This document shows, one piece after another, positions 4,420 through 27,739 of a DNA stretch of 64,000 bases (position 1 is the stretch's first letter; each line of letters starts with the position of its first letter). The translations under genes were made by a program, and so were the position numbers. The notes below the pieces were generated by a model that did no database searches, was not told the origin of the DNA, and worked only from the letters and a program-made list of their open reading frames with translations. This DNA comes from Enterococcus mundtii (GTDB lineage: Bacteria > Bacillota > Bacilli > Lactobacillales > Enterococcaceae): assembly GCF_003957375.1 (NCBI RefSeq), contig NZ_CP025473.1:248001-312000 (forward strand), in the 5' to 3' direction.

Positions 4420-4899
4420 ATGAATATAAAAATCATCTCAGTAGGAAAATTAAAAGAGAAATATCTGATTCAAGGAATCAATGAGTACGTTAAGCGTCTT
4501 AAAGCCTACGGAAAAATCGAACTAATAGAAGTACCTGACGAAAAAGCACCAGAAAATCTTAGCGAAGCTCAAATGCGCCAAGTCAAAGAAAAAGAAGGCG
4601 AGCGTATACTCGCAAAAATCAAAGATCATGAATTTGTCTACGCTTTAGCGATCCAAGGCGAAAATCCTACTAGTGAAGCCTTTGCCAAGCAAATTGATCA
4701 ATTAGGCATCCAAGGGAAAAGCCAGCTCGTCTTTGTCATCGGTGGCTCGTTAGGATTAAGCGATGATGTCATGCAACGCAGCAATGCCCAAATCTCTTTC
4801 GGCAAAATGACCTACCCTCATCAACTGATGCGCCTGATCCTAGTTGAACAAATTTATCGTGCATTTCGGATCAATACTGGGGCTCCATACCACAAATAA
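4420..4899 (+). CDS. rlmH: 23S rRNA (pseudouridine-1915 N3)-methyltransferase RlmH
   Basis: This 159-residue SPOUT-class methyltransferase acts on pseudouridine 1915 of 23S rRNA in the assembled 70S ribosome, using S-adenosylmethionine. The family signatures are a glycine-rich trefoil-knot segment FVIGGSLGLSDDV (about residues 105-117), the segment KMTYPHQLMRLILVEQIYRA, and the C-terminus ending PYHK. It starts with an ATG after AAGGAAA. Its last codons are the integration site of the element downstream: the 16-bp attachment repeat at 4882-4897 lies inside the coding sequence and keeps the YHK ending, with TAA as the stop supplied by the element. This is the equivalent of staphylococcal orfX. 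Confidence 0.96.
   Translation: MNIKIISVGKLKEKYLIQGINEYVKRLKAYGKIELIEVPDEKAPENLSEAQMRQVKEKEGERILAKIKDHEFVYALAIQGENPTSEAFAKQIDQLGIQGKSQLVFVIGGSLGLSDDVMQRSNAQISFGKMTYPHQLMRLILVEQIYRAFRINTGAPYHK
4882..4897 (+). repeat. left attachment repeat (in rlmH 3' end)
   Basis: GCTCCATACCACAAAT encodes the last residues of RlmH (APYHK). An exact copy is at 27724-27739. It corresponds in position to the staphylococcal SCC site in orfX, which also spans the YHK-stop codons. Confidence 0.92.
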
Positions 4900-5101
4900 T
4901 GATATTTTTTAAGAGAAAAAATTATCCCTATTTTAAATAATAGCAATAGGTAGTGGTAGGGAGAAATTTATAAATAACTTTTTTATTTGCTTTGGTAGCC
5001 AAGTAAGTTGCAAAAGAAAAATAGATACTGTTAAAAAGATAATGTAGACATAGAAACAAATACGTAAAATTTTAGTTAGAATAATGGCAAGGAGAAAAAA
5101 C

Positions 5102-6310
5102 ATGATAGATGAAAAAAAGTGTTTAAAAAATCTATTGGAGGATATGGATGATATTGAAGAAAAACTATCTAAATGGACTGGGAAAACAAATATATTTCAG
5201 ATACTTAAGCTATCTAAAAATGAAATAAGACATAGTAATTTTTTAGCTTTTTTGTTTGCTCCAAATGAAACCCACAATTTATCTGATGAGTTTTTTAAAA
5301 TGTTTTTGAAAAGGTATATAGATTCTAATGATGATACCAAAGCTGCTATCAATTATTTTGATGCTTTACTTAATAGCTATGAAGATTTAATTGTTTACAG
5401 AGAAAATAAGAATATTGATATTTTATTGGTATCGGAAAAAAATAAAATAGTGGTGTGCATCGAAAATAAAATTCTGTCTTCGGAGTCTGGAGGGCAACTT
5501 AATAAATACCAAAGATATATAGAACGCAATTATTCTAACTATAAAAAAATTTTTGTTTTTTTAACTCCAGATGGAAATGAACCCACAAATCCTAGTTGGG
5601 GCATAATCACTTACAAGGATATCGTTGAAATACTGGAGCAATTAATGCAAAAAAATAGTATGGAAAAGAAAGTATATTATTTGATAAAAGACTATGTTGA
5701 TATTTTAAGGAGAGATGTCGGAATGGATGATGAAATCAAAGAAATCGTTAGAAAAATTTATCAACAACATAAAGAAGCATTGGATCTAATATTTGAAAAT
5801 ATACCAGATAATTTAAGTTTAATGAGTGAATTATACATTGAAGCTTTGGAACAGATTGCTAAAGAAAATGAAATAATTTTTGATCCCAAGTATAGCGGAA
5901 AATCTATAGTGAGATTCCAAATACCAGAATTCACTGATTTATTTCCAGATTTGCCTTTGTCTCACCCAGGTGGATGGAGTAACCACAAAATGTATGCTTT
6001 CGAAATATTAAATAAAGGAGGAAATAGTGTCGGAAAGATAAAGCTTGTATTTACTGGTAAGATTCCAGAAGAAAATAAAAAATTTGTTGAAGAATTAATG
6101 TTAACGACAGGAGTAAAAAAGAAGAAGGAAAATTGGGAATGGTGGAACGTTGCCGAATGGAAAATTAACAAAGTGAATATGAGATTTATTGAAGAACTTT
6201 ATACAAAGTTAGAGAATGAAGGAAGGGATCAAGTTGTAAAAGAAATCAAGAAATCGCTTGAAAAAATTTTAAAGGATATAAAAGAAAAGCCAGTGAATAC
6301 GAAAAGATAA
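5102..6310 (+). CDS. PD-(D/E)XK nuclease superfamily protein (PDDEXK_4-like)
   Basis: The protein has about 402 residues. Its N-terminal region carries the family pattern NIFQILKLSKNEIRHSNFLA (residues about 26-45). It is followed by a restriction-nuclease core with ENKNIDILL (catalytic Asp) and VCIENKI (the ExK pair) near residues 100-125, and QLNKYQRYIE after it. These are the expected residues of PD-(D/E)XK enzymes, so it is probably an active nuclease or a nuclease-like defence protein. The C-terminal half is unassigned. AAGGAG at 5089-5094 is 7 bases before the ATG at 5102, which is preferred over the ATG at 5084. It is the first gene of the cassette next to rlmH. The upstream 4900-5101 stretch is AT-rich without a gene. 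The DNA target is unknown. Confidence 0.75.
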   Translation: MIDEKKCLKNLLEDMDDIEEKLSKWTGKTNIFQILKLSKNEIRHSNFLAFLFAPNETHNLSDEFFKMFLKRYIDSNDDTKAAINYFDALLNSYEDLIVYRENKNIDILLVSEKNKIVVCIENKILSSESGGQLNKYQRYIERNYSNYKKIFVFLTPDGNEPTNPSWGIITYKDIVEILEQLMQKNSMEKKVYYLIKDYVDILRRDVGMDDEIKEIVRKIYQQHKEALDLIFENIPDNLSLMSELYIEALEQIAKENEIIFDPKYSGKSIVRFQIPEFTDLFPDLPLSHPGGWSNHKMYAFEILNKGGNSVGKIKLVFTGKIPEENKKFVEELMLTTGVKKKKENWEWWNVAEWKINKVNMRFIEELYTKLENEGRDQVVKEIKKSLEKILKDIKEKPVNTKR

Positions 6311-6478
6311 AAAATAAGATAGTGTCAAGTAAAGTGTAAATAGAAATTAATTTCTCCTAAAAATTGTTCGTGATTTATTTTTAGATCTTCGTTTTGCACA
6401 AGAGTTGTTGCTTTTATACCAGGACTTTTTGTTAGAATAATGTTTAGAAATAGTGCTGAAGTAGTTAGGAGTTTAAAC

Positions 6479-7065
6479 ATGAAAAAAATAGGTAAAATTT
6501 TTGTTGGGATTATTCTTGTTTTTATTTTATTTGGTGTATTTGCTAATATTTTTATGTCTAAAGAAAAAAAATCTGAAGAACTGAACAATCCCTTATTGTA
6601 GATGAAAAGAAAGTTAAAGTGAGTGTCGATAGGGATTCTTCTGTAGATGGTTTTTTAATGTTTAATGTAGAAAATTATACTGATAAATCTGTGGTATTAA
6701 AAGTTGAAAACTTGGCTATAAATGATCAAAAACAAAATTTAATTTCTGAAAATATTTCTGAAGAACTTGCTAATAACTTGAACGGAAACACGGGACAAGC
6801 ATTGCTATCTAATCCTAGTTTTGGTGTATTTGGTTATTCTTTAGCTTTGGAACCTGCAAAATATGATGATTCTCATTCTGAAGATAGTATAATTTATAAA
6901 TATGAAAGTACTGAAAATAGAAAAAGGCCAGGAGACTTAAAGGGAGATTTAAAATTTGATTTAATTGTTTATACAACTGACCCTGGTAGTTTAGAATATA
7001 TCTCAAAACCAGAAAAAATGTCTGAGATTTTCAAAAAAAATATACACTTGAAAAATATAAATTAA
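6479..7065 (+). pseudogene. frameshifted membrane-anchored hypothetical protein
   Basis: A good ribosome site (AGGAG) precedes an ATG at 6479 and a frame with one N-terminal transmembrane segment (KIFVGIILVFILFGVFANIF). That frame runs into a TAG at 6599. The downstream frame (codons from about 6577 to 7065) continues naturally as EQSLIVDEKKVKVSVDRDSS and has no start codon of its own with a ribosome site. One base lost near 6580-6583 would join them into a protein of about 195 residues with an extracellular beta-rich domain. I do not recognise the family; the shape resembles secreted DUF4352-like immunoglobulin-fold proteins. It could be a real disruption or a sequence error. Confidence 0.6.
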
Positions 7066-27609: not shown

Positions 27610-27613
27610 ATAT

Positions 27614-27660
27614 AATAGACCTAGTATCATTTTATCCTCGATGGTGATAGGTCTATTATT
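27614..27660 (+). terminator. terminator of the hsd operon
   Basis: AATAGACCTA (27614-27623) pairs with TAGGTCTATT (27648-27657); a further partly paired section lies inside. It closes the last gene before the right end of the cassette. Confidence 0.75.
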
Positions 27661-27723
27661 TAGATTTCATGGAAGTTAATTAATTTGTTCTAGTTTTTTA
27701 ATATCATTTATTTATGATACGCA

Positions 27724-27739
27724 GCTCCATACCACAAAT
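27724..27739 (+). repeat. right attachment repeat of the SCC-like cassette
   Basis: Exact copy of 4882-4897, followed by GA. Before integration rlmH would therefore have read YHK-TGA at this point. A weak hairpin with T6 (27758-27790) follows and is probably the original rlmH terminator. Confidence 0.9.

What the first reader, a model, noticed from the sequence alone, without database searches (positions are those of the whole stretch)
4882..27739. An SCC-like cassette in the rlmH gene of an enterococcus-type chromosome
Seen: an exact 16-bp direct repeat at the rlmH 3' end and 22.8 kb downstream, a 9-bp inverted repeat inside each end, tandem large serine recombinases of 457 and 545 aa, an upstream primase-helicase, and DUF960/DUF1643 genes. 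Established: these are the defining parts of staphylococcal SCC, which integrates at the codons for YHK-stop of orfX/rlmH. The site here encodes the same residues with different codons (CATACCACAAATGA). SCC has been considered largely confined to staphylococci and macrococci, so an intact-looking element here would broaden its host range and be a possible reservoir.
Basis: partly seen in the sequence, partly recalled or inferred. Interest (0 to 1): 0.9.

Follow-up and report, generated by a model that had tools for sequence, protein, structure and literature searches.

The report
Enterococcus cassette chromosome inside rlmH
This is an intact-looking mobile gene cassette, the enterococcal counterpart of the staphylococcal element that carries methicillin resistance; such cassettes have been known in enterococci since 2018, so it is a new example rather than a new kind, though its replication protein and its predicted cut site differ from those of staphylococci in ways worth testing.

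Summary
A 22.8-kb island lies at the 3' end of rlmH between the only two exact copies in the genome of a 16-bp repeat, with open CcrA- and CcrB-type recombinase genes, a Cch-type helicase, DUF960, DUF1643 and a type I restriction system. A sister genome, G029, has the same flanks joined across one copy of the repeat: a natural empty site. The recombinases group with staphylococcal CcrA and CcrB, apart from the five phage integrases sampled. The novelty claim fails: this is an Enterococcus cassette chromosome (ECC), described in 2018 (PMC6222049), after a 2010 survey of ccrABEnt (PMC3068701). Two points go beyond the papers I could search. The predicted crossover dinucleotide is GC in cassette ends of the window's genus (10 of 10) and GA in other Enterococcaceae (11 of 11), as reported for staphylococci; two looser ends outside the genus read GC and AG. 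The helicase is fused to a primase domain of archaeo-eukaryotic type, found in 5 of 105 family genomes, each time near ccrA, and once in another family of the order.

The parts
4420..4899 (+). rlmH, the target gene; its last codons (CCA TAC CAC AAA TAA) overlap the direct repeat
   Evidence: NF000985 258.9 bits; sequence
4882..4897 (+). left copy of the 16-bp direct repeat (attL core); its first two bases GC are the predicted crossover dinucleotide
   Evidence: dinucleotide inferred
4898..4912 (+). element left-end sequence AATGATATTTTTTAA, shared with a cassette end in G035 and in part with G030, G027 and G026
5084..6310 (+). PD-(D/E)XK_4 nuclease-like protein, candidate defence gene (PDC-S26)
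   Evidence: PF14281 8e-33; PDLC04972 8e-141
7906..8235 (+). DUF960 gene
   Evidence: PF06124 6e-27
8262..8561 (+). 99-aa conserved protein between DUF960 and DUF1643; confident alpha + five-strand model, no PDB match at E <= 0.001
8735..9286 (+). DUF1643 gene
   Evidence: PF07799 3e-14
9658..10611 (+). EcsC/SHOCT-like protein, candidate defence gene (PDC-S30)
   Evidence: PDLC04989 2.5e-95; Pfam EcsC and SHOCT both below cut-off
10654..11700 (+). DUF4767 protein, lipoprotein-like start (by eye)
   Evidence: PF15983 2.6e-43
12222..13145 (+). 307-aa protein without a confident family
13169..14774 (-). IS1182-family insertion sequence with 50-bp inverted ends (94%), 99.5-99.9% to the 15 plasmid copies listed, all E. 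faecium
14889..17564 (+). 891-aa protein: N-terminal archaeo-eukaryotic-type primase domain fused to Cch-type DUF927 helicase and Cch HTH domain
17746..17985 (+). 79-aa protein directly upstream of ccrA, 92-94% in two other E. faecium-group cassettes
18001..19374 (+). ccrA (457 aa)
   Evidence: NF047344 4.2e-55; tree
19378..21015 (+). ccrB (545 aa)
   Evidence: NF047343 1.9e-139; tree
21471..24692 (+). hsdR, type I restriction subunit
24782..26221 (+). hsdM, type I methyltransferase
26218..27609 (+). hsdS, type I specificity subunit, with a 215-nt internal repeat at 90%
27702..27723 (+). element right-end motif TATCATTTATTTATGATACGCA, the arm that would meet the left end in the circle
27724..27739 (+). 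right copy of the 16-bp direct repeat (attR core)

Best explanation
The 22.8-kb island is an Enterococcus cassette chromosome (ECC) integrated at the 3' end of rlmH in a genome of the E. mundtii group. CcrA and CcrB recombine the chromosomal site (end of rlmH) with the site on the circular cassette. The predicted crossover is the GC at the start of the 16-bp repeat (Ala codon GCT), so the cassette brings its own copy of the last codons PYHK-stop and RlmH stays intact. Excision by the same proteins would give a circle whose joint is an imperfect dyad around GC, and restore an rlmH ending in TGA. The primase-helicase beside ccrA probably copies the circle. Cargo is defence-like (type I restriction-modification and two candidate defence genes) plus one IS. 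Shown here: anatomy, relationship of the recombinases, and an exact empty site in a sister genome. Inferred: crossover position, excision, replication, transfer.
For: Exact repeat, only two copies in the genome. Empty site: window 2501-4897 and 27724-31799 align at 96.2% and 95.1% to one G029 contig and meet there, overlapping by just 16 bp; that copy differs from the window's at one base. CcrA is 98% identical to E. lactis CCM 8412 and Enterococcus sp. 10A9_DIV0425, 43-45% to four other enterococcal cassettes. In a tree of 45 rows CcrA falls in a 16-row set with staphylococcal CcrA (100/99) and CcrB in a 17-row set with staphylococcal CcrB (98/93); all five phage integrases fall outside both. 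DUF960, 99-aa gene, DUF1643, primase-helicase, ccrA, ccrB are in the same order in E. raffinosus, E. florum, E. rivorum and Enterococcus sp. BWR-S5 (in the first two DUF960 is cut by the locus end). The right-end motif is in 17 of 105 family genomes, its reversed control in none. Published ECC: rlmH site, attL/attR, CcrAB, 21-78 kb, DUF960 and DUF927, hsd genes.
Against: No reads or PCR: excision and transfer are not shown for this copy. Both recombinases score below NCBI's curated cut-offs for the CcrA and CcrB families (187.6 against 700; 465.8 against 900). The direct-repeat core reads TACCACAA, not the TATCATAA reported for E. faecium ECC. The dyad around GC is weak as a test in itself: it is the best centre in attR (100 of 1000 shuffles as good), ties for second in the joined circle site, and is not among the top four in attL, in the joined empty site, in the natural empty site of G029 or in the joined G035 circle. 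The IS1182 insertion suggests some time in place.
Confidence: 0.93

Rival explanations
1. A decayed, immobile ECC remnant: once integrated by CcrAB but no longer able to leave.
For: An IS1182 copy sits inside. A relative, G030, does hold a broken cassette in which a 70-residue stretch of CcrA is what matched. The core TACCACAA differs from the published TATCATAA.
Against: ccrA, ccrB, the primase-helicase and all three hsd genes are open, both ends are exact, and the IS lies between listed genes. TACCACAA also occurs in rlmH-like ends of other genomes, and the one C reported as essential is kept.
Confidence: 0.15
2. A staphylococcal SCC that recently crossed into an enterococcus.
For: Same gene kinds and same target gene.
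Against: CcrA is 26-29% and CcrB 39-42% identical to the staphylococcal proteins compared. The enterococcal and staphylococcal branches are separate and deep. DUF960/DUF1643 lie on the other side of ccr compared with the S. aureus and S. epidermidis loci. The primase domain is fused. The predicted dinucleotide is GC, not the reported GA.
Confidence: 0.01
3. A prophage or other integrative element with a phage-type serine integrase that happens to use rlmH.
For: Large serine recombinases are common in phages; both recombinases match the broad phage integrase family phrog_95 (1e-72, 4e-130).
Against: Ten element proteins scanned against PHROGs matched no structural family, nor did the Pfam and NCBIfam scans. 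The tree separates both recombinases from five sampled phage integrases, although phage row MT835809 joins the CcrB side, outside the CcrB set, with weak support, 80/79. No phage record matches at 60% identity or more.
Confidence: 0.01

Closest known systems
Enterococcus cassette chromosome (ECC), Sivertsen et al. 2018, PMC6222049 (text parts 1-3 of 6 and passages read)
   Same: Target rlmH, ccrABEnt-type recombinases, attL/attR ends, DUF960 and DUF927 genes, hsd genes, size range 21-78 kb.
   Different: Host of the E. mundtii group; direct-repeat core TACCACAA; the word primase does not occur in that main text, so the fused primase domain is not described there; supplements not read.
Staphylococcal cassette chromosome (SCC), pattern 1 (LP1413 + Cch + CcrAB), as described in PMC7581432 (passages read)
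   Same: Cch-type DUF927 helicase next to ccrA-ccrB, DUF960, DUF1643, insertion at the rlmH 3' end.
   Different: CcrA 26-29% and CcrB 39-42% identical; DUF960/DUF1643 on the other side of ccr; the helicase carries an AEP-type primase domain; predicted GC instead of the reported GA dinucleotide.
AEP primase-DUF927 helicase fusions of mobile elements (PrimQH and All3500 families, PMC5862659, passages read)
   Same: Primase domain fused to a DUF927 helicase.
   Different: The passages seen do not link such fusions to Ccr cassettes; whether this domain belongs to either family was not tested.

Membership tests
Enterococcus cassette chromosome (ECC) | ccrABEnt located downstream of rlmH (first criterion of the 2018 paper) | tested here: met
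   identity to the published ccrABEnt sequences themselves not measured, but CcrA is 98% identical to that of E. lactis
Enterococcus cassette chromosome (ECC) | identifiable attL and attR (second criterion) | tested here: met
Enterococcus cassette chromosome (ECC) | TATCATAA motif in the att sites (reported property, not one of the two criteria) | tested here: inconclusive
   direct copies read TACCACAA; an inverted TATCATAA lies within 27708-27719; the C reported as essential is kept
Enterococcus cassette chromosome (ECC) | excision and circularisation | not testable with these tools
   needs PCR or reads
Staphylococcal SCC in the strict sense | CcrA/CcrB above the curated NCBIfam cut-offs | tested here: not met
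   187.6 against 700 and 465.8 against 900 bits
Staphylococcal SCC in the strict sense | insertion at the rlmH 3' end with direct and inverted repeats | tested here: met
AEP superfamily (N-terminal domain of 14889-17564) | AEP fold | tested here: met
   Foldseek best RepB' primase 3h25, E 1.8e-6, TM 0.40 by query and 0.65 by target; 23 PDB chains at E <= 0.001
AEP superfamily (N-terminal domain of 14889-17564) | catalytic acids and motif-II histidine (motifs recalled) | tested here: inconclusive
   D95, D97, D180 invariant in 5 of 5; the histidine is in the window only, 1 of 5

The most novel reading that the evidence does not exclude
Cassette chromosomes of the E. faecium group form a separate compatibility group: their crossover dinucleotide is GC, matching an Ala codon in their target RlmH where most other hosts have Glu (GA), which would bar site-specific exchange with staphylococcal SCC and with GA-type enterococcal cassettes. 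Rare GC and AG ends in other enterococci suggest further groups. Independently, some Lactobacillales cassettes carry a third type of replication module, an AEP primase fused to the Cch helicase, where staphylococcal cassettes have LP1413-Cch or CCPol-MP-Cch2.
Probability: 0.5. Interest if true: 0.5.

Novelty: new member of a known kind. Interest (0 to 1): 0.35.

Why it matters
As a cassette it adds a well-bounded ECC with a natural empty site in a sister genome to a class described mainly in E. faecium. What would matter is the pair of differences from staphylococcal SCC. A different crossover dinucleotide gives a simple testable reason why cassettes of the E. faecium group and of staphylococci should not exchange by CcrAB, and so bears on whether enterococci can act as a reservoir. 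The fused primase bears on the open question, raised in the SCC literature, of how these cassettes start DNA synthesis once circular.

Tried and rejected
SAUGI-like role for the 99-aa gene between DUF960 and DUF1643: its predicted fold (mean pLDDT 90.0) has no PDB match at E <= 0.001, no Pfam match for the window protein even at E 10 and only two PDB sequence hits near E 0.9; dropped.

LP1413 homology of the 79-aa gene upstream of ccrA: no alignment at E <= 100 with the S. aureus protein encoded upstream of the DUF927 gene; dropped.

Crossover at the AA after TACCAC, my first guess from the staphylococcal site: set aside, because the codon block CCNTAYCAY varies independently of the element's right end, because the left edge of the shared repeat is the GC, and because GA is reported as the staphylococcal dinucleotide, which fits the matching Glu codon (staphylococcal rlmH end recalled). 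G035 shows one right end before two different blocks, but one of them runs into a foreign sequence after CCATACC. The data are not fully consistent: with the left end ATAATGATATTTTTT the block is CCATACCAC in three genomes, CCGTACCAC in one, CCTTATCAT in one and CCGTATCAT at a second site of G030; and G028, G029 and the window share a right flank but carry three different blocks. The position stays an inference.

A clean two-way split GA/GC: not borne out once the arm was allowed up to 4 mismatches in the loci already held. G075, outside the window's genus, then shows a GC end 111 bp before a GA end, and G018 an AG end. I lowered the probability of the novel case from 0.55 to 0.5 for this.

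Species name: G000 has no name. The first 20 kb of its second contig match a plasmid of E. mundtii Pe103 at 100% and the rlmH flanks match G028 and G029 at 95-96%. I first thought of E. hirae; G026's contig of 2,827,741 bases made me recall E. hirae ATCC 9790, which is recall only.
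Full report
What is there. rlmH runs from 4420 to 4899. The 16-mer GCTCCATACCACAAAT lies at its 3' end (4882-4897) and again at 27724-27739. There is no third copy within three mismatches in the window and no other exact copy in the 2.83-Mb genome. It is the longest direct repeat between rlmH and the rest of the window, of lengths up to 20 tried. The distance between copies is 22,842 bp. The stretch between has 33.8% G+C against 38.8% and 38.4% in the flanks.

Empty site. 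A BLAST of window 2501-32000 against 20 fetched loci shows window 2501-4897 matching G029 at 96.2% and window 27724-31799 matching the same G029 contig at 95.1%. The two matches overlap there by 16 bp. G029 therefore has the uninterrupted site; its copy of the 16-mer has one base different (CCG for CCA) and its rlmH ends in TGA. In the window rlmH ends in TAA, which under the model is supplied by the element. Of 15 genomes of the genus searched with the right flank, 4 match: the window's own, G028 and G029 over the full query or all but one base, and G034 over 26 bp only. G028 carries another cassette end next to the same flank.

Host. The window's genome has no name. The first 20 kb of its second contig match plasmid pPe10301 of E. 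mundtii Pe103 over their whole length at 100%. Other genomes with its genus code include E. lactis CCM 8412 and Enterococcus sp. 10A9_DIV0425, identified by equal contig lengths and places. I take the host as E. mundtii or a sister species.

Recombinases. CcrA (457 aa) and CcrB (545 aa) match NCBI's CcrA and CcrB models best (4.2e-55 and 1.9e-139), but far below the curated cut-offs. Among 105 family genomes, 16 match the window CcrA at E <= 1e-20. Seven of these, the window's included, have an intact close relative (43-100% identity), G030 has a broken one, and the other eight have only more distant serine recombinases. In a tree of 45 rows the window CcrA sits with two E. faecium-group sequences, then with four other enterococci, then in a 16-row set with five staphylococcal CcrA and four more distant enterococcal rows (100/99). 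CcrB behaves alike (17 rows, 98/93). Five phage integrases and five enterococcal single serine integrases lie outside both sets. Phage row MT835809, Javan426 and two Clostridia rows join the CcrB side with weak support (80/79). The program warned of long branches (among them L020, L040 and phage rows); one, L020, lies inside each set, so the outer limits of the sets are less sure than the window's near relatives.

Shared order. DUF960, the 99-aa gene, DUF1643, primase-helicase, ccrA, ccrB occur in this order in E. florum, E. raffinosus, E. rivorum and Enterococcus sp. BWR-S5. In the S. aureus and S. epidermidis loci DUF960 and DUF1643 lie after ccrB. The cassette region of 10A9 (G035) shares several blocks with the window at 92-97% but not, in the stretches compared, the helicase or the restriction genes apart from a weak hsdS piece: modules are shuffled.

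Ends and crossover. The right-end motif TATCATTYAYTYAYGATANNCNGNNCC, with one mismatch allowed, was found in 17 of 105 genomes at 21 places, the reversed control in none. The base after the fixed G was left free. It is C in 10 of 10 places in the window's genus (9 if an assembly duplicate in G028 is dropped) and A in 11 of 11 places in other genera (counted). Against a clean split: with up to 4 mismatches in the arm, in the loci I held, two more ends outside the genus appear that do not read GA, a GC in G075 and an AG in G018, besides a further GA in G085; all ends in the window's genus still read GC. The dinucleotide is the first two bases of the codon before PYHK: Ala (GCN) in the genus, mostly Glu (GAR) elsewhere (the matches outside the window were not each checked to be rlmH, and GC-type ends occur in other genera too, as in G012, G014, G046 and G048). 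A passage in PMC10581047 citing Misiura et al. 2013 (itself not held) gives GA as the central dinucleotide needed by staphylococcal CcrAB. The dyad test alone is weak: GC is the best centre in attR of the window (100 of 1000 shuffles as good) and GA in the joined E. florum site (193 of 1000), but GC only ties for second in the joined window site and is not in the top four in attL, in the joined G035 circle, in the joined empty site or in the G029 empty site. So GC as crossover point is an inference, about 80% likely in my view.

Replication protein. The 891-aa protein combines DUF927 (1.2e-28) and the Cch HTH domain (7e-7) with an N-terminal part that reaches the LigD primase-polymerase model barely over its cut-off (27.6 against 27.4 bits); of the five sequences aligned, two match that model. 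The one PDB sequence match is 5dgk, named active helicase, over residues 411-866; the N-terminal profile finds no PDB sequence. A model of the first 334 residues (mean pLDDT 82.1) matches AEP primases by fold: RepB' (E 1.8e-6), S-2L PrimPol, Prim-PolC, LigD, CAPP; 23 chains at E <= 0.001, with TM-scores of 0.35-0.41 by query and 0.38-0.67 by target. D95, D97 and D180 are invariant in all five sequences; the motif-II histidine is in the window only, so activity in the relatives is uncertain (motif roles recalled). In the family a relative is found in 5 of 105 genomes at E <= 1e-30, each 424-1798 bp from ccrA. In the order, 11 of 395 sampled genomes match; 4 match over nearly the whole length and 7 over the helicase part only. 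The one full-length match outside the family, G166, lies in a complete-looking cassette: rlmH, DUF960, DUF1643, primase-helicase, CcrA 38%, CcrB 60%, and a second att site 22.9 kb on. In the five staphylococcal loci compared the match covers residues 328 onward only. In E. lactis only the helicase part matches, and no relative was seen in the 10A9 stretches compared, so the fusion is not universal in ECCs. PMC7581432 (passages) states that a canonical AEP or DnaG primase had not been identified for SCCs. Fusions of AEP primases with DUF927 helicases are known in other mobile elements (PMC5862659, passages).

Cargo. Type I hsdR, hsdM, hsdS, all open; a PD-(D/E)XK protein and an EcsC/SHOCT-like protein that match candidate defence families; an IS1182 copy nearly identical to copies on E. 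faecium plasmids. I saw no drug-resistance family among the matches of the element proteins scanned; no dedicated resistance search was made. Of ten element proteins scanned, none matched a structural phage family.

What is known. ECC was described in 2018 (PMC6222049: parts 1-3 of 6 of the text and passages): rlmH insertion, ccrABEnt, attL/attR, sequencing of the circle joint in three strains, transfer with a helper plasmid, 32 full elements, 1 of 20 E. mundtii genomes positive. ccrABEnt was surveyed in 2010 (PMC3068701, passages). [quoted passage not shown] My paper searches that bear on the dinucleotide difference and the primase fusion in enterococcal cassettes were, with term searches inside PMC6222049, PMC7581432, PMC10061031 and PMC5862659. 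None showed a description, but I saw listings and passages, the library holds open-licence papers only, and supplements were not read.

Verdict. A real, well-bounded, probably mobile ECC: ordinary in kind. The two differences from staphylococcal SCC are the part worth following.

Noticed in passing
L112 (G018), L110/L111 (G017), L113 (G072): A second enterococcal CcrA/CcrB lineage, about 27-30% (CcrA) and 45-47% (CcrB) identical to the window pair, with GA-type cassette ends on the same contigs; the G018 genome holds both lineages on different contigs.
   Followed up: partly
L146-L147 (G166): A complete-looking AEP-Cch-CcrAB cassette of about 22.9 kb in rlmH of a genome from another family of the same order, with a second DUF960/DUF1643 copy beyond its right end.
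   Followed up: partly
L150 (G075:C17) 558 and 669; L112 (G018) 11243: Cassette right ends 111 bp apart with different predicted dinucleotides (GC, then GA) in G075, and one with AG in G018: exceptions to the GA rule outside the window's genus.
   Followed up: partly
window 26243-26457 and 26954-27168: hsdS holds a 215-nt direct repeat (90%) at the start of each half, a possible substrate for specificity shuffling by recombination.
   Followed up: no
G035:C2 (L094-L097): A composite of cassettes: two right-end motifs in about 62 kb and broken pieces of the PD-(D/E)XK gene; beside one end a transposase-adaptor-like sequence suggests a scaffolding artefact (adaptor identity recalled).
   Followed up: partly
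G025:C2:107800-108200 (L067): A cassette right end with the same outer flank as an rlmH-like end in G023 and an end in G027, but on a separate 142-kb contig, perhaps a plasmid.
   Followed up: no
window 28113-30442: Small proteins next to the right end with about 70% similar DNA elsewhere in the same genome, resembling a secreted-toxin or type VII cluster (that resemblance is recalled).
   Followed up: no
L028 (IMG/VR contig, 4.2 kb): A contig filed as viral encodes CcrA 99% identical to the window's plus residues 1-379 of CcrB: a cassette fragment rather than a virus.
   Followed up: no
window 17746-17985: A 79-aa gene 15 bp upstream of ccrA, kept in three E. faecium-group cassettes and distantly in the second Ccr lineage; its place would suit a regulator or directionality factor.
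   Followed up: partly
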